Source: Blepharisma japonicum (taxonomy: Eukaryota > Ciliophora > Heterotrichea > Heterotrichida > Blepharismidae). Taken from it: a DNA stretch of 64,000 nt. The stretch covers positions 361,953 to 425,952 of the forward strand of contig CATKHK010000036.1 of NCBI GenBank assembly GCA_949751835.1, written 5' to 3'. How positions within the stretch are numbered: the stretch's first letter is position 1; every line of letters starts with the position of its first letter. Shown here piece after piece: positions 24,252 through 46,806 of the stretch. The notes under the pieces are model-generated. The model saw only the letters and a program-made list of their open reading frames with translations, was not told the DNA's origin and ran no database searches. The position numbers were made by a program, and so were the translations under genes.

Positions 24252-25316
24252 TTAGCGCCTGATATCATAGACTGGATTATACTCAAATCTCACCTGCTCA
24301 AATACATGAGGGTGCCAACCAGGAGGGATCTCAACTTGCCTTGGTGGATGTGCGTACATCGCATATATTATCATAGGTATTTCTATTGATGGATTCTCTC
24401 CACCACATAGAGAACAACCTTCAAGTATCGCATGTGAGTCTAATGAATATATGCACTGAATAAGAGAGCCGTTTGTTGAAAACTTTGAGCCAATTAAGTG
24501 GCGAACTGACGGCAAATCCAGATTTAAAAATACAGCGTCGGACTCAGATAATTTTTCACCTATTCCAACTCCTCTAGCCCGAACCTCGAGTATTTTTTCC
24601 TTAACAAATCATGTTGAAGTTACACAACGAAGTCTGACAGTCCTTCATAAAGTGCATGCTAAATGCGTGATTTTCAGATTGCCATTGGTATTGTCTGCTT
24701 CAATAATAGCGCTAGCAATTTGATCGGGAGTATATGCATCTTGGCTGAACTTCGATTTAAAATAAAAGGTGCCTTTATTTATACAGCAGCAACTTTCTAA
24801 AGGACTTGTTTCTTCGAGCAGAATATTAGTTGAAAAAGCTCGTATTTTTTCAAAAATATGAATATCAACTTTATCCTTTAATTTTTTGCCATTTGGGAGA
24901 ATAAATTTTGACTTGAGCTTGTATTCGATGCTTGCATGAGTTGATCCTTGCATAAATACAAAAGAACCTGGAAGTTCATTAGGGAGCCTAAGACTGAATG
25001 GAAACGTATATGACTCTGGAGGAACATTATAGTTTCATTGATAAATAGGAAATTTCACATTAATAATAGTGTGATACCCATTGAAACGTGCAGTCTTTGG
25101 TCCATTTCCTCAGTGCTTTACTTCACCATCTGGAGCGCCACTATCTAGCTCTACCCAGTGAGTTTTTTCAATTCCTTTTAATTGAAGAATAAGTGTGCAT
25201 GGAGGCAAAGTCTCTTGGAGCATCACATTAATTGTTCCTGCTGCTTCTGCGCCTGTCTGAAGGCATCTGCTTTCTAATTGAATATGCATTCCTCCTTTAA
25301 CGCTGCTGGTTCCCAT
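24252..25316 (-). CDS. Alpha-arrestin-like protein, copy A, 354 aa
   Basis: ATG at 25314-25316, TAA at 24252-24254, UGA Trp codons throughout. Starts M-G-T-S-S-V-K-G-G, a possible N-myristoylation context (Gly2). The N-terminal half has the arrestin-N pattern (M-H-I-Q-L-E-S then G-T-I-N-V-M-L-Q-E and L-I-L-Q-L-K-G-I-E-K-T-H-W). The second half has the arrestin-C strands, ending in P-P-G-W-H-P and F-E-Q-V-R-F-E-Y-N. Alpha-arrestins are adaptors for endocytosis and ubiquitination of membrane proteins; this role is inferred. First of five paralogues in the same orientation. Carries a three-Cys run at about residue 160. Confidence 0.85.
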
Positions 25317-25592: not shown

Positions 25593-26657
25593 TTAGTAAT
25601 TTTTATGGTCATAAATTGGATTATATTCAAATCTCACTGGCTCAAATACCTGAGGCTGCCAACCTGGAGGAGGCTCCATTAGCCTTGGACGTTGGGAATA
25701 AGCTGCATGAATCATCATGAGCATCTCTGTCGAGGGTTCTTCTCCTGTCCCACAAAGGCAGCATCCGCCAAGTATAGCATGAGATTCCAAAGAATATATG
25801 CACTCAATCAGAGTACCTTTTGTAGAATAATGCATATTAATAAGATGGCGGACCGAAGGCAAGTCCAAGTTTATAAAAATTGCATTAGAGTCAATCAGCT
25901 TCTCACCTATTGCAAGTCCTCTTGTCCTAATATCAAGGATTTTTTCTGCATTAGTATGTGTGGAAGTCACACAACGAAGTCTGATAGTCCTTCACAAAGT
26001 GCACGCTAAATGCGATATATTAAGTTTGCCGTTAGTGTTATCTGCTTCAATTATGGCACTAGCAACTTGATCAGGAGTGAAAGCATCTTGGCTGAATCTT
26101 GATCTTAAATAAAAGGTTCCTTTATCAGAACAACAGGTCTGCAAAGGGCAGTTATTTTCTAAAAGAATATTCTTTGAATAAGCTTGGATTTTTTCGAACA
26201 TATAAATTTCGGTCTTATCTTTTAATTTTTTTCCATTTCGCAGGATGAATTTCGATTTAATTTTGTATTCGATACTTGCCCTTGCATGGTGATGGGTGTA
26301 TGTAAAAGAGCCAGGAAGCTCATAAGGTAGCACAAAACAAAACGGAAAGGTATAGCATCCAGCAGGAACATTAGAGTTTCATTGATAAATGGGATATTTA
26401 AAATTTATGATAACATGATATCCATCAAAGTATTCTTCGTTTTTTGAGCCAAATTTCCTTTCTCCATCTGGTTTTTGTATAAAATTTCACTCTACTCAGT
26501 GAGTTCTCTCAATTCCTTTGAGCTGAAGGATAAGGCAGCAAGGAGGCAAGGTTTCTTGAAGCATTACATTTATCGATCCGCTGACTTCTGCTCCTGGCTG
26601 GAAGCAATGATTTTCAATTTGGATATGAATACCTCCTTTCACGCTGCTCGTGCCCAT
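25593..26657 (-). CDS. Alpha-arrestin-like protein, copy B, 354 aa
   Basis: ATG at 26655-26657, TAA at 25593-25595. Same length and start (M-G-T-S-S-V-K-G-G) as copy A, and visibly similar along its whole length, including the G-S-I-N-V-M-L-Q-E, D-N-T-N-G-K-L-N-I and P-P-G-W-Q-P-Q-V-F-E segments. Trp residues at the conserved Y-Q-W and T-L-W positions are encoded by UGA. The Cys run after the fourth or fifth strand is short (C-C). Placed 276 bp upstream of copy A on the same strand, consistent with tandem duplication. Confidence 0.85.
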
Positions 26658-26760: not shown

Positions 26761-27828
26761 TTAATCTGTTCTAATATCATAGGCTTGATTATATTCAAAC
26801 CTCACTTGTTCGAATACCTGAGGCTGCCATCCAGGAGGAGGTTCAATATAATGTGGAGGTGGTGCATACATAGCATAGATAACCATAGGCATTTCGAGTG
26901 AAGGATTATCTCCTCCACAGAGACAGCACCCGTCAAGTATTGCATGAGAATCTAGCGAATACATGCATTGAATGAGTGACCCTTTGGTTGAATAATTCAT
27001 GTCAATTAAATGACGGACTGAAGGCAAGTCCAGGTTTAAAAATATCCCATTGGAGTCAGACAGTTTTTCTCCTACTGCAAGTCCTCTTGCTCTGCTCTCA
27101 ATAATCTTTTCTTTGACAAAGTGAGTGGAAGATCTGGCTTTAAGCCTAATACTTCTCCATAAAGTGCAGGCTAAATGCTCAATATTGAGTTTTCCATTCG
27201 TATTGTCTGCTTCAATTATAGCACTTGCAACTTGATCAGGAGTATATGCATCTTGGCTGAATTTTGATTTAATAAAGCAAGTTCCTTTATCACAGCAGCA
27301 ACAGCAAACAATGTGACTGTTTTTTTCTAGTAGGATATTGGTACTAAAAGCTTGGATTTTTTCGTAAATAAAAATTTCTGTTTTATCTTTTAGTTTTTTG
27401 CCATCTGGTAAAATAAATCTTGATTTTATTTTATATTCAATACTTGCTTTAGTGCTTCCTTTATGATAAGAAAAAGAGCCTGGAAGAACATCAGGCAGCC
27501 TAAAGCAAAATGGAAGGGTAAAGCATCCTTGAGGAATGAATGTGTTTCATTGATAGATGGGGAATTTAAAGTTGATGATCTTATGCTTTCCATCGAAGTA
27601 TTCAGTATAGGACTCAGATCTCGTGCCACCTTTACCGTCTGGAACGCTTCTTGAGCGTAATTCTTCCCAATGTGTTTTCTCAATTCCTTTCAGTTGAAGA
27701 ATAAGAGTGCACGGAGGTAGAGGTTCTTGGAGCATAATATTTATTGCTCCAATGACTTCTGAGCCTGGCTGAAGGCATCGATTTTCAATCTGGATGTGCA
27801 TTCCTCCTCTAACACTGGTGTTTCCCAT
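26761..27828 (-). CDS. Alpha-arrestin-like protein, copy C, 355 aa
   Basis: ATG at 27826-27828, TAA at 26761-26763. Starts M-G-N-T-S-V-R-G-G and follows the same arrestin layout as copies A and B. It is the copy that most resembles B by eye (shared L-P-S-V-R-H-L-I-D-M and C-L-C-G segments). It carries a run of five consecutive Cys at the position where A has three and B has two. The spacer to copy B is only 103 bp. Intact along the whole frame with UGA as Trp. Confidence 0.85.
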
Positions 27829-29081: not shown

Positions 29082-30197
29082 TTATTCAGTCCTTGAATCA
29101 TATACTTGATTATATTCGATTCTTGCCTCCTCAAATATCATAGGATGCCAATCAGGAAAAGGCTCAGCCAGAATTTCTGTAGGCAGAGCATGCATAGCAC
29201 AGATTATCACTGGAATTTCTATTGAGGGATAACTACGCCCCAATCCTGAAGGGCAACACTCATCAAGAACTGCATCAATACAGATTGAATACATGCATTC
29301 AATCAATTGACCCTTTGCTGAATAAATCGTATCAATTTTATTTCTGGCTAAAGACAAATCAAGATAAAATAAAATTGCAGAGGACCCGCAGAGCTTTTCC
29401 CCTTTCCCAGGTCCCTTACATGAGCATGCGACTATAAAATTCTTTTGGAAATGGATTCTGCCTATTCTATCTCGGAGTCTAATCGTCCTTCACAAAGTGC
29501 AGTTTAATCTCTTTATGTTAATTTTGCCATTGGTATTATCAGCTTCAACAAGAGCACTAAAGACTTGATCGGGGGTACATGAATTTTGATTGAATAGAGA
29601 AGTCATGTAAAGAGTTCCATTGTCGCCACAGCAGCAACAGCAGCAGGTGTTTTCTAAGGAGATACTCTTTGCTAAATGAATATTTGTTTTTTGCTCCTGA
29701 ATCTTTTCATAGATAAAAATTTCAACTTTATCCATTAATTGCCTGTCCATTGGCAGTATAAATTTTGACTTGATTATATATTGAATACTTGCTGAGGTTC
29801 TTCCTAGTGAGTATTTTAAAGTACTTGGTAATGCATCAGGAAGTTTAAAAGAAAATGGTAAAGAAAAAGACCCTGGAGAAACAAATGAATTCCACTGATA
29901 AAGTGGATATTTAAAGTTTATAATTATACGTTTTCCATAAAAATGTTCAGTGTGAGTTGTAGTTGTAGTACTTCCATTAATATCTGTATTTCTATCTGTA
30001 CGGTCTTCTTTCCAGTAAGTTATCTCAATTCCTTTAACTTGAAAAATCAGTGTACAAGGCGGGAGAGCTTCTTGAAGCATGACACTTATCATTCCATCGA
30101 GCTCTGAGCCAGGCGAAAGGAACCGACTCTCAATCTGAACTTTAATTTGCCCATTAGCTCTGGCTTTCGCCTTCTTAGCATGTCTAATATATTCCAT
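29082..30197 (-). CDS. Alpha-arrestin-like protein, copy D (divergent), 371 aa
   Basis: ATG at 30195-30197, TAA at 29082-29084. The N-terminus differs from copies A-C (M-E-Y-I-R-H-A-K-K-A-K-A-R-A-N-G), so it lacks the Gly2 myristoylation context but gains a basic leader. Core arrestin segments remain (S-R-F-L-S-P-G-S-E-L-D-G, M-L-Q-E-A-L-P-P-C-T-L-I-F-Q-V-K-G-I-E). It has the longest Cys run of the family, six in a row. The C-terminal region (F-P-D-W-H-P-M-I-F-E-E-A-R-I-E-Y-N) is diverged but complete. Confidence 0.82.
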
Positions 30198-34527: not shown

Positions 34528-35535
34528 TTAAAGGCTATAAAAATTAAAAGGGTCATTTTGGATAGGCTCAGCAGGAAATAAATAAATCAGAATTTCTATT
34601 GATGGCTTTTCACCTAAGCATGTACATCATCCATTCATGTCAGCATGATACTCTATTATATAAGAGCACTCAATCAATGCACTTTTTGTTGAATAAATCA
34701 TGCCAATTTTGTGTTTAATCAATGAGAGATTCAAATCCATAATAATACCATAGGGTCCAGCTAAAGATTTTCCAAAATCCAGTCCATCTTCTCTAGTTTC
34801 AATAATTCTTTCCTTAATAAACGTACTTGACTTACCTGCTTTTAGCCTGATAACTCTTCATAAAGTACAAAATAAGCTTGATATATCGATTTTGCTCTGA
34901 GAATTGTCTGCTCCTACTATGGTGCTAACTATTTCATCTGGAGAGTATATATTCTTATCTATTTTTAATTTCAGCGTGCAATTACCTTGGTTAATACAGC
35001 ATCACTTTTTTAATCTAAAAGATTTATTGATCTCTTGATTTTTCTGACAAATAATAGCTTTTTCATTTATATAAATTTCTGTTCTGTCAAATAGTTTTCT
35101 TCTATTTGTTATAATTAATTTTGATTTAACTATATATTCTATCTTCGACCAGGTAGTTTCTTTTTTGTATTTGAATGATCCTGGAAGATTATCAGGCAGT
35201 TTGAAGGTAAAAGGAATATTGTAATCCCCAGCAGGCAAGCTTGACTTTCATTCATATAAAAGTTGCTTAATGCTAACGATAGTTTTTTTATCCTGATAGT
35301 TTTGAATATATTCTTCCTCTGGATCTAATTCTGGATCAGCAGTATGGCTAGCTGAAGATTCTTCTCAATAAGTCTCTTCTATTCCTTTAAAGCTGAGAAA
35401 AAGAGAGCAACGAGGAAGTACATCATGAAGATAAAAGTGAACGCTGCCATTAATATCTCCTCCGCCATTACAATCCATCTTTTCAAGCTGAATATGCATT
35501 GAACCTTTTATTGTTCTTGCTTGGGAACTCCCCAT
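34528..35535 (-). CDS. Alpha-arrestin-like protein, copy E (C-terminally shorter), 335 aa
   Basis: ATG at 35533-35535, TAA at 34528-34530. Starts M-G-S-S-Q-A-R-T-I-K-G-S, retaining Gly2. The frame is open across its length with UGA at 35002-35004 and elsewhere. Arrestin core motifs are present but diverged (H-F-Y-L-H-D-V-L-P-R-C-S-L-F-L-S-F-K-G-I-E-E-T). The final strand with P-P-G-W and F-E-x-x-R-x-E-Y-N found in copies A-D is missing. Either it ended early by mutation or it is a functional short form. It lies on the far side of the glucosidase gene, 235 bp beyond its stop codon. Confidence 0.78.
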
Positions 35536-37360: not shown

Positions 37361-38644
37361 CTATGTATTATTTAAATCGATCCTGCAGACTTCTGTCAAT
37401 GATGATGCTAAGACGTTAAATTGAAAGACACAAAGGTCAGAAAATCTTAAAATGCAAATATTTTTATCTTGAATAACTGGTGGAGACTGACTTCACCAAT
37501 TTAGTTTATCTTCAATAGATACCAAGGAACCTGCTGTGTCATCATCTCCTATCAAGCAAATTTTTTTACTCTGAAAAATGATAATTCCTTTGTCAGTTGA
37601 AGCTAATGTGCAGCCTTGATCACTGAGAGGAAATTCCAATTTTATATTTTCAACATAAAAATTTTCTAAACTGATCTTTTCAATGCTGAACTCCTTATTT
37701 CCGCCTGCTACATATATATTGTTCCTATGATAGCATACCCCTGGAAATCGTCTTGACAAATGCAAATCCCCTAGCATTTCTCAACTTTTAGATTTTAGGT
37801 CATATCGCTCAAACGCAGTGATATCTCCTATTCCTATTCCTCCAAAGACATATATAAAATTATCAACGAGCAAGCCTGAGTGGTAATATCTCGCCGTGAT
37901 CAGGTCTGCTTGACTGATAAATTCATAAGTTTTGAGGTTAATTTCAAAAACTGTTTTCACAGCTTGGCCAAGAATAGAAGATCCTCCAGTTACAAGGACT
38001 GACCCTGGGAACCCTATAATTGCTGAAAAAACTTTGCTTTTCAAGCCTTGAATTGTAAAAGTTTCTAAACTTTGTTTAGAAACATCATAAATTCTCAGTT
38101 TATCTTGCCTAATATTATATAACTTTGTAGGGCCTATACTTGGCCCTTCGTATTTTACCTCAATTAAAACATTAGCCAGACTATTTTCGAACTCTGGCAG
38201 CTTCATTTCTACATTTGTAAAATTCCGCCCACTTTTCATGAACTTGCTGAACTCTTTTATCTCAATTTGATCAATCCTTTGTATTATAGAATTCAGCTTT
38301 TCTAGCGTTTCTTGCTTTTTTCCTTCAATTTTCATAAGAATTTCCTTCAATTTGGATTGAAGTTGCTCTATCTTTGCCATGATTTCTAATTTAGATTTGT
38401 CTGCTGCTTCTGTGACTCTTTTAATTTCTTCTTCTACTTTGGAAATAATTAGTTCCTTCTTATGATTTTTGCTTGAATCTTCAGAAATAGAAATATCAGG
38501 CTTATCTTCGATTATGATTTTTCTACTAAAATGTGAGATTTGAGCTAAGGCTGATTTGTGATTTTCAAAGCATTCTTCGCAGCACATGATTCCTGAACAG
38601 TAGCATCTAATTACGGCACCCTTTGGACAGATACAGCAATTCAT
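37361..38644 (-). CDS. B-box-like zinc finger, coiled coil and Kelch-like repeat protein, 427 aa
   Basis: ATG at 38642-38644, TAG at 37361-37363; UGA Trp codons at 37778-37780 and 37493-37495. Residues 1-45 have a Cys-rich zinc-binding pattern (C-C-I-C-P, then C-Y-C, C-C-E-E-C and H) like B-box domains. Residues ~65-145 form a coiled coil. From ~180 there are Kelch-like blades (S-V-L-V-T-G-G-S-S, F-I-Y-V-F-G-G-I-G, N-I-Y-V-A-G-G-N). The order B-box, coiled coil, beta-propeller is that of TRIM-like proteins without a RING. It begins 38 bp after the stop of the ankyrin/SAM gene on the same strand. Confidence 0.75.
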
Positions 38645-38682
38645 ATTTTTATAAGAAAATACTATAAATTAATTATTTCAGA

Positions 38683-40065
38683 TTACATCACCTCACAGAA
38701 CTGGCAGGCTGTACCATTGTTCTCTCTTTCAAAATTCATGAAATTAGTCCTCAGCCTCTTTATACTCCCTGATTCTTCTTTTAATTTCGCAAGAATCCTT
38801 TGTCGGTGCCCTAGTTTCTCGATCCCTATTTCATTCTCTAGTACATACTCAGTGATGGGATAGTTCGAATTCATCAACAACAAAATTTGTTCGAAATTGT
38901 CAAACCCTGAATTGTAGAAATCTCGATAGTGCTCGGACATGCCAAGCGACTCAAGCCATTCTTGGAGAGTAGGGAGTAAGTGAACCCCGGGTGCTGAAAT
39001 TGGGTTTATGCATCATCCATTCGCAATTTTTTCTTGGGCTGAAGAAGGGGTTTGCTTTTTCATGCTGTCCTCTTCTAGTAAAGCTAGTAGACGATAGCGA
39101 TATCCTGGCTTTGAGATGCCGATAGTAGTAAGGATATCTACTGTTAAAGGCATTTCTGACTGCATTTGATCAAGCAAAATCTCAAGATCATCAAACCCAT
39201 TTTTTACTAAAAACTCGAACGTTTGTTCCAGCTTTTTTGAACAAAGCCACTGAAATAGTGAATTTTTCGACAAATCAATTCCAAAAGAAAACGTTCTGTA
39301 TGTATTTGTGCTGGGTCGTTTTGCAATTGTTTTTTCACATTCTGGCTCAAGTACAGATTCTTTGATGCTTAGATCTTCGCTTCCTGAGTCTTCACTGTCA
39401 CTTCCTACATGCTCTGTTTCTTCATCAACAAAATTACTAAAACTGATACTCTCTTTCTCTTCTTTTCTATTCGGGGTATGCGGACTTAGATCAAAAATCG
39501 GCTCTGATAAAATCTTTTTCATTTCCTCAGAAGAAGCAAGCTCAATTGCGTTTTTCCCTCCTCTATCTTTCAGAAGAGCTGATGCATCGCTGTTTATCAA
39601 GATTTCTGCTACTTGAATGTGCCCTTTTTCTGAAGCATAATGGAGAGGGGTTTTCCCAAATACAAAATTTGGGATATTTGGGTTTGCTTCGTGCTTAATT
39701 AGGAGTTTTGCCATATTGATGTGACCTTTAAATGCAGCAAGATGCAAAGGGGTGTCGCCGTCGTTTTGTTGGATATTTGGATCAGCTTTATATTCTAAAA
39801 GAAGTTTGACAATTTCTAGCAAGTTATTGTCAGCAGCTTGGTGAAGTGGGGTTTCACCAAGTCGGTTTTGAATATTCGGCTTTGCTCCTCTTTTTAAAAG
39901 AAACTCTGTTGCTTGGAGATGTCCGCAGATAACTGCACGATATAGAGGTGCCCAGCCAAGTTTGCTGTCTAATTCATTCAACCCTTCTGGGTATTTGTCA
40001 AGCGCTTCTGAAAGAGACGGGATATCGCCAAGTCTGCAAGCTTTTTGAATTTCATCTGAATTCAT
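38683..40065 (-). CDS. Ankyrin-repeat protein with two SAM domains, 460 aa
   Basis: ATG at 40063-40065, TAA at 38683-38685; the UGA at 39013-39015 is Trp. Four ankyrin repeats occupy about residues 36-168 (G-E-T-P-L-H-Q-A-A, G-D-T-P-L-H-L-A-A, G-K-T-P-L-H-Y-A-S). After an acidic Ser-rich linker come two SAM domains: about 270-335 (L-F-Q-W-L-C-S-K-K-L with G-F-D-D-L-E) and about 365-432 (L-Q-E-W-L-E-S-L-G-M with G-F-D-N-F-E-Q). SAM domains often polymerise and ankyrins bind partners, so an adaptor role is likely. The start codon lies 18 bp from that of the divergent NACHT gene. Confidence 0.88.
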
Positions 40066-40083
40066 TTAATTTATTTAATTCAT
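40066..40083. promoter_or_regulatory. 18-bp divergent intergenic spacer between two start codons
   Basis: The 18 nt TTAATTTATTTAATTCAT separate the ATG of the ankyrin/SAM gene (minus) from the ATG of the NACHT gene (plus). This is too short for two independent promoters and leaders. Promoter elements and transcription start sites must therefore extend into one or both coding regions, or one annotated start is too far upstream. Confidence 0.55.
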
Positions 40084-43000
40084 ATGGAGATATCATATGC
40101 AAACTATCTGATTTCACGTCTTTCGATCTTCAAAGATCCTTTTTCATCTACAGAAATCCAAACAGAAATGCTCTGCTACCCAATTTCATATCTAGCAGAA
40201 GACCAACTGAAAGGGCTTGAGTGTGGGCTCCTACAAGACATCGAAGATCACCAATTGATTTTTGATTCTCTACAAAAAGATCTGCCAAAAAGCGAAAAGC
40301 TGAGCTATGAGCACCACTTTATTGCGGATGGTGCTGCTCATCTTCTTGCAAACTCTCATAGAGAAAACTTTGTTTTCCTGCTCGGAACTCCCAAAATAGG
40401 GAAAAGCTCTCTGTTAAGGAAAATTGCTTTGCTCGCAGCTCAAAATTTGAAAGGCAATCCTAATAGCCCTATTCCTTTGCTAGTAAACTTAAAGAAAGTT
40501 ATGGAATATGAAGTATCATCAATGGTGCAGTTTATGGAAGCATGCTACAGTCAGCTCGAAGAATTCGAAGCTTTTCTCAGGCAAAAATTTTTTCATGGAA
40601 AAATTATTTTACTTTTAGATGGATTAGACGAAGTCAAAGGGCAGAAGAAAAAAGTTTGTGAATACGTCTTCAAGGTTATAGAAATGTATTCATCTCTATC
40701 TCTCTGTGTGATTACTTCGAGGTTCAAAGGATATATTGAAACAAAAGGAGCAGTTGTGGCAAGAATGGAGCTGATTCCTCTTAAATTACAGATTTCTATG
40801 GCGCAGTATATGCTTTCTGAGCTACAGTTTGAGCGGTTTGTATCAATTGTGACTGAAGGATCTAATTTTTATAGTGAGTTTATGAGCACACCTTTTTTCC
40901 TATCTCTTTTCTTAGACCTTTTTAGATGGGGAGAAATAGGGGCAAGTGAAAATATTTCTAGAGGGATTTTATATAGTATAGGTCTGAGGAAACTATTGGG
41001 AAAGTCTGTCACTCCAGATATATTCAGGTTTCTTGAGCTATTGGCAACCGAAGTTTTGTCAAAAGATATAAGAGAGTTTTCGTTCCTCGACGTACAAAAA
41101 TTAGGCTTTGGTGAGTGTTGAAATGCTATCAAGCAGATGCCTATATTTATAAGGGTAGAAAACGATATTATTGAAAAGCTTTCTTCAGGACCTTTGAGTG
41201 ATGAAGAATATTATAGAGATTCCATCGATGCAGAGAGCGGTATTGGAGAGGTAAAAGATACACCTCTTTTTCACGCCCTTAAAGGAAGTGCAGCCAGACT
41301 TTCATCTATTCAAAAATCAAGCTTAATCAAAGACAGGATTTTTTCTTTGCAAAGCTCCAAAGAAAGCTTGGAGAGAGAATTAAATTGTGAAGCTCTTGAG
41401 TATTTTAGATTTCTTAGCCTTAGATTTGCTGAAATTCTCTCTGCTCATAATTTGATTAACCAGATTGAAGACCTTATCTCTCAGCTTGCAGGAGCTTTTT
41501 TAATGGAAAGTTCAGCATTTCAGAAAGCATTCAATCAATGCCTTCCTAGAAACTATTTATTTTCTAGAAAACACAGAGAAGTGATCACTTTATTTGCTTC
41601 TCTCTGCAATGAAAACATTTTTGAAAACTTCATAAAATATCTGCTAGCCGAAAATACTCTTGAATTTTGCCATATAGCAGAGCGCCTTTTAAAAGAAAGA
41701 AACCAAACCCACAAATTCAAGCATTTAATAAACAAGCTGAAACAGTCAAAATATGAATTGACTAAAAAGCAGTTCGTTAGGAACTTTTCTCATCCATCGT
41801 CAGTTGTGAGGAGGATTTGTAGGTCAGAAGCTATTGATAATGGGATTTTTGAAATGGAAATGCAGACTTTAATCAGTCGAAATTTTGAAGCTTCGTTAAG
41901 GCTTTCACATTGGTTAGCGCTTAAGCAAATTTCTACTGTATGCAATGATTCAAGTGTAAGGGTGACCAGAATTTTATTAAATAGAGTGATAGATATTGCT
42001 GCTGATATGATTCAGCAGGCCAATAAATCGCAATCTTATAAGTCAATTGTTCTCAAAGTGCATCTTACGCTTCTCTTGGCTAGCTTTGAAAAAGTTGATA
42101 AAAGCCCTTCAGGTCAAAACTCTTCAAGCTCTTGCACAACTCCTCCATCAAATGTAAGTATTGCTCCTAGTGCCCAGGAGCTGTTTGATAAAAATACAGA
42201 AGAATCAACAATAAGGATAAGCTTTGATAGGATGAAAATTCCGAGGAGAGACTCAGTGAATCTTGATAGGATGGGGTCAACCAATAAAGTGATATCAACT
42301 TTGCTAGAAGCACTGAGAGTTTGTGAATCAATTGACGTTAATTTAACAGTCAGATCTTTAATTTTACTTGGCTGCTCTATGAGCCATATGCACTCTGCAC
42401 TTGCAGGTAGATTTTTCAATCTTGGAGACAGATGCAGCAAGCTTGACATTTTGCAAGTTCTTAGAGATCTAGGGTTTGTGACCCAGCACACTGTGGATAT
42501 CCCATTACTTTGTATTGACTATTCAAAAGAAACCAAGGAAAAAGCCAAAGAAATTTTACGATTGCTAAATGCTGGGAAACTGAAAAAATATGCAATGAAT
42601 GTTCTGATGAAAGATGAGTCACAGCCAGTTAAATCAATACTTGCACTACGAGCGTTAGGATTCGCTAGCTCTTTTGAGCTTGACGAAGAAGTTGTTCACT
42701 TTCTTGTTCAATTTATTGACCATTATGATTTGTTATTCCGACTTGAAGCCTTAAAAAGTCTTTACAATTTAATATCAGTAACTCAAGGCATTAACACTCA
42801 AGATACACAAATCCGCAAAATACTAGCTGCAGCTCCTCATGTTATTAGAGACCGGCTAAAGCTACCCAAATACTCTAGCACCATGAGGATAGCAAGCTTA
42901 AAATGTTTAATAGCTCTTTGAATCTTGCTTGATAAAGGTAGAGAAGATAATCATATCTGCGAAATGAATCATATTTTGGTTAAAGAACAGCTAGGGACAA

Positions 43001-44466
43001 GTTTTCTTGTAGGGAGCCTAGAAAGCATAATGCCGATCCTTTACGAGTTTTTAAGCAGTGGCATTCAAGAAGAAATTGAAGCAGGATGGCAATGCCTCAT
43101 TGAGATAGACCCATTTTCAAACAACTCAAATTTTCCTGAAGTGATCAAATTTGTGAAAAATGCTTTATTGGATGGCAACATCAAAACAAGAAAATATGCT
43201 TTAAAATTGTTGGTAAAAACTATACCTTCCCTCGAATTAAAAGACGAAACTATGAAAATCTTGGTCGACCTTATCCCTGTCTTCACTTCAAAAGAAATCG
43301 AGCTGTCAGCCAAAATAATTTTTAACTGAAGTGAAATATCATCACTGAAGTCAATTTTTCCACCCCTTAGCTCAGCTATTTTACCTGAGTTTGCAGCCCA
43401 TTTTTCAAATATTTTCCATTTAATTGATACTCTCAGTAAAATTATTGATCAGGAATATGGGTATGTTTCAGAAGTTCCTCAGACAGGACCTTCAGCAGAA
43501 TTTAAACAACTAAATCATCAGAATAAATCAATAATGAACCATATCACAGAAAACTTGCAAAGCACGCTAAAAGCTTCAGTTCCCAAAAGAAACGAATTCC
43601 TTGATATAAGCGGAGAACCATCATTTTTTAAAGACGATTCTCTGCAAGACATGTCTATTATAGAAATTGACGACTCCGAAAACAAGACTTCTCTTGACAG
43701 TGGATCAGGTGATTCTGATGAAAAGCTACCTTCCATTGTTTTGTGCTATACTATTCTCAAGTCTGGAATTAAAAGCGAAGCAGTTAACCACATAGTTTTG
43801 AAATATCTGAAAAAGTACGATAATATCGAGGAATTCTGCGTAGCTGCAGAATCATGGGCAATAATAAATTGCAGCAAAGAATTCTACCAACCTCAAGTAG
43901 AAATTGCTATAAATAACCTTGTTGATGATTATCCTGAAAAAATAGCAAAAGCTGTGATTGACTTGAAATTTAAATCTGATAGCATTTGCAATAAGTTAAT
44001 CGCAAATTTGAGCTCTGGAACTCTCAAGCTTGATTATACATATAAAGCTATTCTTATAAGTATGCAGCTGAATTCATCTGCGCCATTGGAAGAGTTATGC
44101 AGGCTAGCAATAAGCTACACTAATAATGATCCACAGCTACTTTTGTTTATTCATAACCAAGTAAGTAACGCAATTGAGCAGTTCACAATTAATTGCGATT
44201 CGCAGTTGAAGTCTCTAATTATCTGTTTGAGCAATAACCATTGTGGGCTTTTGGTGCAGCCAATTTGACAGTATTGAACAAATCGGCTGAGTGAAAACCC
44301 TGGGTACGTTCTTCCTGAAGATATTCAAATTGTGCTTGAAAATTCTGAAGATATGGACTCAAAGTTCTTATTGAGATGGGCCAGAACTTTAGGAATTTTA
44401 AAAGTTGAATTTGTAGGGAATGAATCAATCATAAGTATGCCAACAAGAAAAATGTGAAATATATAA
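40084..44466 (+). CDS. NACHT/STAND-type NTPase with long helical-repeat C-terminus, 1460 aa
   Basis: One continuous frame from ATG 40084 to TAA 44464-44466, with UGA Trp codons at 41119, 42919, 43327 and 44266. Walker A is G-T-P-K-I-G-K-S-S (residues 101-109) and Walker B is I-L-L-L-D-G-L-D-E-V with the acidic D-G-L-D-E pattern typical of NACHT (Asp179). I-T-S-R-F-K-G is a sensor-1-like motif and F-M-S-T-P-F-F-L-S-L-F resembles the conserved Pro motif. The remaining ~1100 residues are helical, probably HEAT/ARM-like repeats, with a Ser-rich loop near 675-720. STAND ATPases are signalling switches in immunity and cell death in other eukaryotes and bacteria; function here is inferred only from that. 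Confidence 0.82.
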
Positions 44467-45597: not shown

Positions 45598-46806
45598 TTA
45601 CATATACAGAGGGGATTCATCAATATTATAATTTCTGATAACCCAATTTACATTTTCAATTGAAGTCGAAGTCGCGTTTACTATAATTTTTTTCACATCG
45701 CTTAGAAATTGTAAATCAATGTGCTGCATCCCTGAAACTCAAACATTCATCTTATCTTCCAGAGGAAGCTGCCTTGCAGACTCATAAACTTCTAATAGAT
45801 CGCCTTCTTCTAAATCAGAAATATCTTTAAGGCCAGCTACAATTCCTTTGATGATTTGAAAAAGTTGAGTGCCATCAAGCATAATATTTGCATAGCGGTG
45901 AAAATATTCTTTCGTCTTTTCCATTGATGGGAAGTGGACTTGCCCTATGTTTCTGCCCTCAAGCACTTCGTCAAGATCTCTGAGTATGCTGAAAATATAT
46001 CGTTCAAGCCTTTCCATGTGTTGGTTGTAAAGTGTTTCAGCTAAAACACTGTCCTTTCTTAAGCAATTGCAATAAGAATCCACTGAGAAAATTGTTCCTA
46101 ATTTGATATCTACAAATTCAGGATCTCCCAAATTTTCACCATAGAGTCCAGTAGGAATTACTTCTATGCAAAGGGTGTTAGGATTCCCTTCATTATTTCA
46201 AATCAGAGGGATTCTATCAGAGTTATTCAAAAATAGATCCAGGGCAAGAATAACGCCTAAGTCGCGAAGTCTTGAATAGCCTTTAATTTTATCATACCCA
46301 AAGCATAAAGCCGATCGCTTCGGGCCTAGCATTAATAAAGAAAGAGTAGGATAGTATTCTGACACAATCAAAAAAGGACGATCAAGTTCATGAGTTAGCT
46401 GATTGTCAATGTATAAATCATGGTATGTCTTGGATCTCAAAGAGTGCATCATCTTTTTGAATTCTTTATCTTTATATTGAATGATTCGTGCAAGAGGCAC
46501 TTGGATTGCTAATTTTTGGTATAAAAGAGTATTAAAATAATCTTGCGCTACATTAGGGGAACCTTTAACGGTTAAAGCTCTATTGTCTTCAAATTGGCAT
46601 AGAAAAATCCCTGTTACTCCTCCCTGCGCACAATCAACTCCAATCAACTCTTTCCAAGAAAAATCATAAATTTCTGCAGGCTGAGATTTCAAGTTAAATT
46701 TAAACTCATTCTTGCTCGGCTTCGCTTTATGGTATTTCTCCACTAGCTTCCTTGAAACTGGATCATAAAAATCATTCGGATGTTCGCTAATATAAGGAAT
46801 TTCCAT
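45598..46806 (-). CDS. Actin-fragmin-kinase-like (PI-kinase-fold) protein, 402 aa
   Basis: ATG at 46804-46806, TAA at 45598-45600. The pattern G-V-D-C-A-Q-G-G-V-T-G-I-F near residue 58, A-L-T-V-K-G-S near 78, and D-R-I-P-L-I-W-N-N-E-G-N-P-N near 198 matches the catalytic domain of the actin-fragmin kinase family first known from Physarum, an atypical kinase fold. The D-R-x-P-L-I-W motif spans a UGA Trp codon (46198-46200). Actin-regulating activity is inferred from the family. Some catalytic residues may differ and were not checked individually. Confidence 0.8.

What the first reader, a model, noticed from the sequence alone, without database searches (positions are those of the whole stretch)
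37361..44466. Compact cluster: NACHT ATPase, ankyrin/2xSAM adaptor and B-box/Kelch-like protein
A 1460-residue NACHT-type switch ATPase (Walker A G-T-P-K-I-G-K-S-S, Walker B with D-G-L-D-E) starts head to head with an ankyrin protein carrying two SAM domains. A B-box/Kelch-like protein begins 38 bp after the ankyrin gene's stop. Established: NACHT proteins act as ligand-triggered oligomerising switches, SAM domains polymerise, and B-box/coiled-coil/propeller proteins are often recognition or ubiquitin-ligase-like factors. Inference: the three could form one signalling or self/non-self module. I know of no description of such a module in heterotrichs.
Basis: partly seen in the sequence, partly recalled or inferred. 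Interest (0 to 1): 0.72.

Follow-up and report, generated by a model that had tools for sequence, protein, structure and literature searches.

The report
NACHT neighbour of lipid-anchored ankyrin-SAM gene
Three real, tightly packed genes sit side by side in a ciliate genome, but little found here suggests that they work together; the more telling find is that the middle one belongs to a large family of ankyrin-SAM scaffold proteins that carry a likely signal for lipid attachment to membranes at their ends.

Summary
In detail: three intact ORFs (TGA read as Trp) encode a 1460-residue NACHT protein, an ankyrin + 2xSAM protein 18 bp away head to head, and a B-box/coil/Kelch protein 38 bp behind it. 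The inferred module is not supported. Short gaps are common in this genome. No other NACHT place (11 of 12) lies within 6 kb of an ANK-2xSAM gene, 0 of 17 further ANK-2xSAM and 0 of 19 further Kelch loci show the other partner in the DNA held, and no motif is shared. Against this, one other NACHT gene (C80) has a Kelch gene beside it, and 3 of 8 STAND loci lie within about 10 kb of an ANK-2xSAM gene (post hoc). Synteny in other species and co-expression could not be tested. New here: the ankyrin gene belongs to a family of at least 23 ANK-2xSAM genes, and 23 of 23 end in a CaaX-type cysteine box, against 3 of 95 other ORFs. Best reading: a membrane-anchored (prenylated) SAM-clustering scaffold of the Caskin/ANKS1 kind, beside a single-copy NACHT switch by position only.

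The parts
40084..44466 (+). NACHT / STAND ATPase, 1460 aa, 6 TGA codons read as Trp, single match in the genome; helical, perhaps alpha-solenoid, after the NACHT core
   Evidence: helices from a low-confidence model of residues 1-640
40384..40407 (+). Walker A GTPKIGKS (residues 101-108)
40603..40632 (+). Walker B IILLLDGLDE (residues 174-183), NACHT-type DGxDE
40708..40722 (+). sensor-1-like VITSR (residues 209-213)
40888..40923 (+). TPFFLSLFLDLF (residues 269-280), like the helix after the NACHT core in NLRs (likeness recalled)
40066..40083 (.). 18-bp gap between the two divergent start codons; smallest of 23 divergent gaps seen
38683..40065 (-). ANK-2xSAM protein, 460 aa, member of a family of at least 23 genes in this genome
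39496..40062 (-). ankyrin-repeat domain (residues 2-190)
39061..39267 (-). SAM1 (residues 267-335)
38746..38973 (-). SAM2 with long last helix (residues 365-440)
38686..38697 (-). C-terminal CaaX box CEVM (residues 457-460), with a second Cys at -7
   Evidence: Cys at -4 in 23 of 23 family members
38645..38682 (.). 38-bp gap between ankyrin stop and Kelch start
37361..38644 (-). B-box / coiled-coil / Kelch protein, 427 aa, with a 61% paralog on C15 (coil by reading)
38531..38638 (-). B-box-like zinc site (residues 3-38)
   Evidence: seven ligands invariant in 3 paralogs, position 25 Cys or His; weak Pfam match
37400..38104 (-). Kelch-repeat region (about residues 181-415)

Best explanation
Three independent signalling-type genes lie next to each other by position only in a very compact somatic genome. 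(a) The ANK-2xSAM protein is one of at least 23 paralogous scaffolds. Its C-terminal cysteine is probably prenylated (X is Met here, the farnesyl type by recalled rules), which would hold it on a membrane; the ankyrin repeats bind a client; the SAM tandem joins molecules into clusters, as in Caskin and ANKS1. (b) The B-box/coil/Kelch protein is a RING-less adaptor that probably self-associates by its coil and binds a target with its propeller. (c) The NACHT protein is a single-copy STAND switch: nucleotide exchange in the NACHT core, sensing through a long helical region, with no recognisable N-terminal effector domain. Shown: the ORFs, the domains, the family, the CaaX conservation, and different direct neighbours at ANK-2xSAM paralogs. 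Inferred: lipidation, clustering, client binding, switching.
For: Domains. Family of 23. CaaX in 23 of 23: searches (18 members; 5 members), against 3 of 95 other ORFs. Three Prenyltrans (PF00432) matches are in the genome. A model from 16 aligned members is confident for ANK and both SAM domains, with the last 18 residues at low confidence, as for a loose tail (mean pLDDT 76.8). Chance adjacency: short gaps are common; in the DNA held, 0 of 17 further ANK-2xSAM loci match the window NACHT or Kelch protein and 0 of 19 further Kelch loci match the window NACHT or ANK-2xSAM protein; the nearest other NACHT-ANK-2xSAM distances are about 7 and 10 kb; of 15 other ANK-2xSAM genes with a visible 5' neighbour, two have a divergent neighbour of another kind at 39 and 47 bp. 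The published Blepharisma stoltei somatic genome is described as gene-dense with short intergenic regions (PMC9942806, passages).
Against: The 18-bp divergent gap is the smallest of 23 seen, so these two genes may at least share control DNA. Three of 8 STAND loci, this one included, lie within about 10 kb of an ANK-2xSAM gene; for the other seven alone P is about 0.002 to 0.008 depending on the distance chosen, post hoc. The nephrocystin-3-like NACHT gene on C80 has a Kelch gene directly upstream on the same strand, 23% identical to the window Kelch protein over 165 residues. The search used the window NACHT protein, which does not find the other STAND proteins of this genome by sequence. Lipidation is read from sequence only, and the 23 members share ancestry.
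Confidence: 0.7

Rival explanations
1. The three genes are one signalling or self/non-self module: ligand makes the NACHT protein oligomerise, it nucleates the SAM polymer of its head-to-head partner at the membrane, and the B-box/Kelch protein recognises or disposes of the target.
For: Direct adjacency with 18- and 38-bp gaps; NACHT and oligomerising SAM domains suit such a chain by known family behaviour; two CHAT-STAND loci (C12, C15) have an ANK-2xSAM gene 7-10 kb away; the NACHT gene on C80 has a Kelch gene directly upstream.
Against: Paralogs of the neighbours lack the partners in the DNA held; the C12 and C15 pairs are separated by several other genes and differ in orientation; Kelch genes are many (57 matches, a lower bound), so one beside one of seven STAND loci is not rare, and the C80 one is not of the closest subfamily; no shared motif (the best of 20 comparisons has 46 of 500 shuffles reaching it); no gene fusing the domains was met in the calls made.
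Confidence: 0.12
2. The NACHT and ANK-2xSAM genes are only co-regulated: they share one tiny bidirectional promoter region without their proteins touching.
For: 18 bp between start codons, smallest of 23 divergent gaps; the first 28 codons of the NACHT frame score like other gene starts (0.128, within -0.066 to 0.38 of 28 ORFs, itself included), so the start is plausible.
Against: No homolog fixes the NACHT start; Met29 would widen the gap to 102 bp. Two other ANK-2xSAM genes have divergent neighbours of other kinds at 39 and 47 bp, so such closeness carries little meaning.
Confidence: 0.15
3. The NACHT protein is a housekeeping AAA+ ATPase that only resembles NACHT.
For: The Pfam score is near the cut-off (25.5 and 29.3 bits against 26.7), and ORC1- and CDC6-like proteins of this genome also reach the NACHT model.
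Against: NACHT is its best family, with no ORC/CDC6, AAA-lid or AAA_22 match up to E 0.1 (unlike); DGLDE Walker B and TSR sensor are NACHT-like (recalled); the only PDB sequence match is NLRC4, at an insignificant E 0.29.
Confidence: 0.05

Closest known systems
Caskin-1/2 and ANKS1A/ANKS1B (ankyrin repeats plus SAM tandem)
   Same: Ankyrin repeats followed by two SAM domains; these SAM tandems are the nearest solved structures by sequence; the Caskin-2 tandem is reported to oligomerise (abstract, PMC4994250).
   Different: No SH3 or PTB domain in the window member; it ends in a CaaX box, present in 23 of 23 paralogs; at least 23 genes in one genome.
Fungal STAND/effector gene pairs such as NWD2/HET-S
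   Same: A STAND ATPase gene lies next to a gene for a protein able to oligomerise (abstract, PMC3321046).
   Different: In that system the STAND protein's N-terminus matches the effector's motif and the clustering is conserved (abstract); here no shared motif was found and paralogs lack the partner in the DNA held.
NACHT-family STAND ATPases (NLRs, NACHT-WD40, nephrocystin-3-like)
   Same: Walker A, DGxDE Walker B and sensor-like TSR in order; best Pfam family NACHT.
   Different: No recognised N-terminal effector domain and no LRR or WD40; a long region without a family match above cut-off.
B-box/coiled-coil/propeller proteins (TRIM-like, Kelch adaptors)
   Same: B-box-like zinc site, coil (by reading), Kelch repeats.
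   Different: No RING was found, so no ubiquitin-ligase activity of its own is indicated.

Membership tests
NACHT STAND ATPase | NACHT profile match with Walker A, DGxDE Walker B and sensor | tested here: met
   29.3 bits, over cut-off; 25.5 bits, just below it, on the whole protein; motifs
NACHT STAND ATPase | C-terminal repeat sensor region | tested here: inconclusive
   Only a sub-threshold HEAT_2 match, E 0.041; helices in a low-confidence model of residues 1-640, mean pLDDT 38
NLR with effector domain | N-terminal death-fold, SAM, TIR or other effector domain | tested here: not met
   No Pfam match up to E 0.1 before residue 89
STAND/effector gene pair (NWD2/HET-S type) | Shared motif between the two proteins | tested here: not met
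   20 part-by-part comparisons, none beyond shuffles
STAND/effector gene pair (NWD2/HET-S type) | Clustering conserved across species | not testable with these tools
   No other heterotrich genome held; within this genome 0 of 17 further ANK-2xSAM and 0 of 19 further Kelch loci match the window partners in the DNA held
Ankyrin-SAM-tandem scaffold (Caskin/ANKS1 kind) | Ankyrin repeats followed by two SAM domains | tested here: met
Ankyrin-SAM-tandem scaffold (Caskin/ANKS1 kind) | SAM-mediated oligomerisation | not testable with these tools
   needs protein
CaaX-prenylated proteins | C-terminal C-a-a-X kept in the family | tested here: met
   Cys at -4 in 23 of 23; X is Met 13, Ile 4, Phe 3, Leu 2, Val 1
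CaaX-prenylated proteins | Prenyltransferase genes in the genome | tested here: met
   3 Prenyltrans matches; which is farnesyl- or geranylgeranyltransferase was not resolved
CaaX-prenylated proteins | Lipid actually attached | not testable with these tools
   needs labelling or mass spectrometry
TRIM-type ubiquitin ligase | RING domain before the B-box | tested here: not met
   the protein begins with the B-box-like site; no RING in Pfam

The most novel reading that the evidence does not exclude
In this ciliate, prenylated ANK-2xSAM scaffolds are the membrane platforms on which STAND receptors (this NACHT protein and the CHAT-STAND proteins) assemble, a ciliate counterpart of an inflammasome-like hub, with Kelch adaptors as recognition parts; the linkage of STAND and ANK-2xSAM genes (3 of 8 STAND loci within about 10 kb) and of two NACHT genes with a Kelch gene would be traces of that partnership.
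Probability: 0.06. Interest if true: 0.8.

Novelty: new variant of a known kind. Interest (0 to 1): 0.33.

Why it matters
If the CaaX reading holds, this ciliate carries a large family of membrane-anchored, SAM-clustering ankyrin scaffolds, an architecture that I know of in no other group (recalled), and a set of candidates for signalling or cortical organisation in a large cell. It also gives a first list of STAND proteins in such a genome, for which the listings I saw show no published account (capped lists).

Tried and rejected
Structure of NACHT residues 1-640 without an alignment: mean pLDDT 38, so no fold search was made with it. No fold search was made with the ANK-2xSAM model either. 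Relatives of the NACHT protein in prokaryote and viral contigs: none confirmed. PADLOC: no match. NCBIfam: only chance-like matches for the NACHT protein. PDB by sequence: none at E<=1 for the whole NACHT protein; NLRC4 at E 0.29 for residues 61-470, not significant. Introns of 15 or 16 nt of the form GTA..TAG on the coding strand of the NACHT gene: none found. Rejected as NACHT relatives: the ORC1-like (C62) and CDC6-like (C30) matches. The C8 ankyrin locus (L060) was left out of the family count because the part held shows no SAM. Overlapping loci L019, L028, L029 and L051 repeat L017, L020, L022 and L011 and were not counted again.

Papers: PMC9942806 passages only (no occurrence of NACHT or ankyrin in its main text); PMC3321046 and PMC4994250 abstracts and outlines; all others seen in search listings only. 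Searches for such genes in ciliates: 12 of 653 shown; 0; 0; 1; 10 of 22 shown; 1; 8 of 135 shown; nothing shown describes them. Searches were searches on the genome, Caskin and CHAT.
Full report
What is there. With TGA read as tryptophan, the window holds three intact ORFs at the stated places: 37361-38644 (-), 38683-40065 (-) and 40084-44466 (+). Pfam gives Kelch repeats with a weak B-box to the first, ankyrin repeats and two SAM domains to the second, and NACHT to the third. The gaps are 38 and 18 bp. The NACHT frame holds six TGA codons, which fits a native nuclear gene of a ciliate with this code.

Is the tight packing special? In the window, 8 of 37 gaps between ORFs of at least 100 aa are 38 bp or less, the two in question included. 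In the sampled loci, with 74 gaps between ORFs of at least 150 aa, 9 of 37 same-strand gaps are 40 bp or less. So the 38-bp gap is ordinary. The 18-bp gap between two divergent starts is the smallest of 23 divergent gaps (7, 16); 1 of the 16 is 40 bp or less. The first 28 codons of the NACHT frame score like other gene starts, but no homolog fixes the start, and Met29 would widen the gap to 102 bp.

Do the genes travel together? One search compared all ORFs of the held loci with the three window proteins. Seventeen further ANK-2xSAM loci were covered (L011-L018, L020-L027, L052): none matches the window NACHT or Kelch protein. Nineteen further Kelch loci (L031-L049): none matches the window NACHT or ANK-2xSAM protein. 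Flanks are mostly 1.5 kb (for L052 about 0.4 kb on one side and 8 kb on the other), so mainly direct neighbours are tested, and this search does not see other STAND families, which are too unlike the window NACHT protein. By position, however, the 12 NACHT places and the 23 ANK-2xSAM genes share a contig only on C36, C12 and C15, and the nearest gene-to-gene distances besides the window pair are about 10 kb (C12) and 7 kb (C15). In one search the 5' neighbour of 15 other ANK-2xSAM genes could be seen: no two begin alike, and two of them are divergent and only 39 and 47 bp away. Tight head-to-head packing with other genes therefore happens to this family anyway. The NACHT protein itself has one match in the genome, itself.

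One result goes the other way. The nephrocystin-3-like NACHT gene on C80 (L003) has a Kelch gene directly upstream on the same strand. It is cut at the end of the stretch held, so whether it has a B-box is unknown, and it is 23% identical to the window Kelch protein over 165 residues. Kelch genes are many (57 matches, a lower bound), so a Kelch neighbour at one of seven other STAND loci is mild evidence at most. The neighbours scanned at the other STAND loci are a DNA polymerase subunit B (C7), a weak ATG16 match (C12) and four without a family.

The NACHT protein. Walker A at residue 101, Walker B with DGLDE at 174, a TSR-type sensor at 209 and a TPFFLSLFLDLF helix at 269 come in NACHT order (likeness to NLRs recalled). 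Pfam NACHT scores 29.3 bits in the genome search and 25.5 bits, just under the cut-off of 26.7, in the whole protein. The next families are weaker: VMAP-M1 20.1, NPHP3_N 18.3, AAA_16 15.8. Nothing is found before residue 89, so no effector domain is recognised. A single-sequence model of residues 1-640 is poor (mean pLDDT 38); only its helix-rich make-up is worth mentioning.

The 12 NACHT places sort as follows. C12 (two places), C15, C7:718-722k (two places) and C39 are four proteins of one type, by reading; the complete C12 one has CHAT, a NACHT ATPase and a second NB-ARC/STAND ATPase, while the C39 part scanned gives no CHAT match and the C15 one was not scanned by Pfam. C80 is nephrocystin-3-like and C25 resembles it by reading. 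C7:226k is a NACHT-WD40 protein. C62 is ORC1-like and C30 CDC6-like, not counted as NACHT proteins. With the window gene this leaves 8 STAND loci.

The ankyrin protein. One search gives 111 matches (92 of 257 candidates scored, so a lower bound). Twenty-three genes match in both the ankyrin and the SAM part. All 23 end with a cysteine four residues from the end: 18, where L016 and L027 are only the C-terminal frames of split genes, and 5 read from the translations. The last residue is Met in 13, Ile in 4, Phe in 3, Leu in 2, Val in 1. A second cysteine lies at -7 in 15 and at -8 in 4 more. Of 95 other complete ORFs of at least 150 aa, 3 have Cys at -4. Most of the tail before it varies, so the box looks kept by selection, although shared descent means that the 23 are not independent. 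The genome has three Prenyltrans matches. A model from 16 aligned members shows an ankyrin domain (to residue 190), a loose linker, SAM1, SAM2 and a loose tail. The nearest solved SAM domains are those of Caskin-2, Caskin-1, ANKS1B and ANKS1A.

The B-box/Kelch protein. It has a 61% paralog on C15 and a 33% one on C97. The zinc pattern is kept in all three, with His for Cys at position 25 in the third. No RING is seen.

The module idea. In fungi STAND genes do lie beside effector genes, with a matching motif (abstract of PMC3321046). That motif test fails here: of 20 part-by-part comparisons the best has 46 of 500 shuffles reaching it. The closeness of CHAT-STAND and ANK-2xSAM genes on C12 and C15, given 23 such genes in 45.2 Mb, has a probability of about 0.002 (10.2 kb) to 0.008 (20 kb) for two or more of the seven other STAND loci. 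This test was made after seeing the data, takes a uniform genome, and the pairs have several other genes between them, so I rate it as a lead only.

Verdict. Observation confirmed; the module reading is not supported and only partly testable. The part worth following is the CaaX-bearing ANK-2xSAM family.

Noticed in passing
G000 C12:389165-394282 (L050), C15 from 473723 (L052/L001), C7:717-722k (L004), C39:195-199k (L053): Large proteins of one type (by reading): the C12 one has a caspase-like CHAT region, a NACHT ATPase and a second NB-ARC/STAND ATPase in one chain. The His and Cys motifs of CHAT look kept in the C12 and C15 members and changed in C39 (by reading; C39 gives no CHAT match).
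   Followed up: partly
G000 C12 and C15: CHAT-STAND genes with an ANK-2xSAM gene about 10 kb and 7 kb away, with several other genes between and different orientation; post hoc P about 0.002-0.008.
   Followed up: partly
G000 C80:100816-104352 (L003): A Kelch gene directly upstream, same strand, of the nephrocystin-3-like NACHT gene.
   Followed up: partly
window 24252-25316, 25593-26657, 26761-27828, 29082-30197, 34528-35535: Five arrestin-fold genes near each other (Arrestin_N in all five), four of which start with Met-Gly, as for N-myristoylation (rule recalled; starts).
   Followed up: partly
window 45598-46806: Protein with a strong actin-fragmin kinase catalytic domain match (E 4.9e-42), the second gene after the NACHT gene.
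   Followed up: no
G000 C32:431-433k (L016) and C49:289-291k (L027): ANK-2xSAM genes whose frame is split in two, perhaps by tiny introns; only the C-terminal frames were used for the CaaX count.
   Followed up: no
window 40084-44466, residues 476-563: Sub-threshold match to VMAP-M1, a region of vWA-MoxR-associated proteins (20.1 bits, cut-off 25).
   Followed up: no
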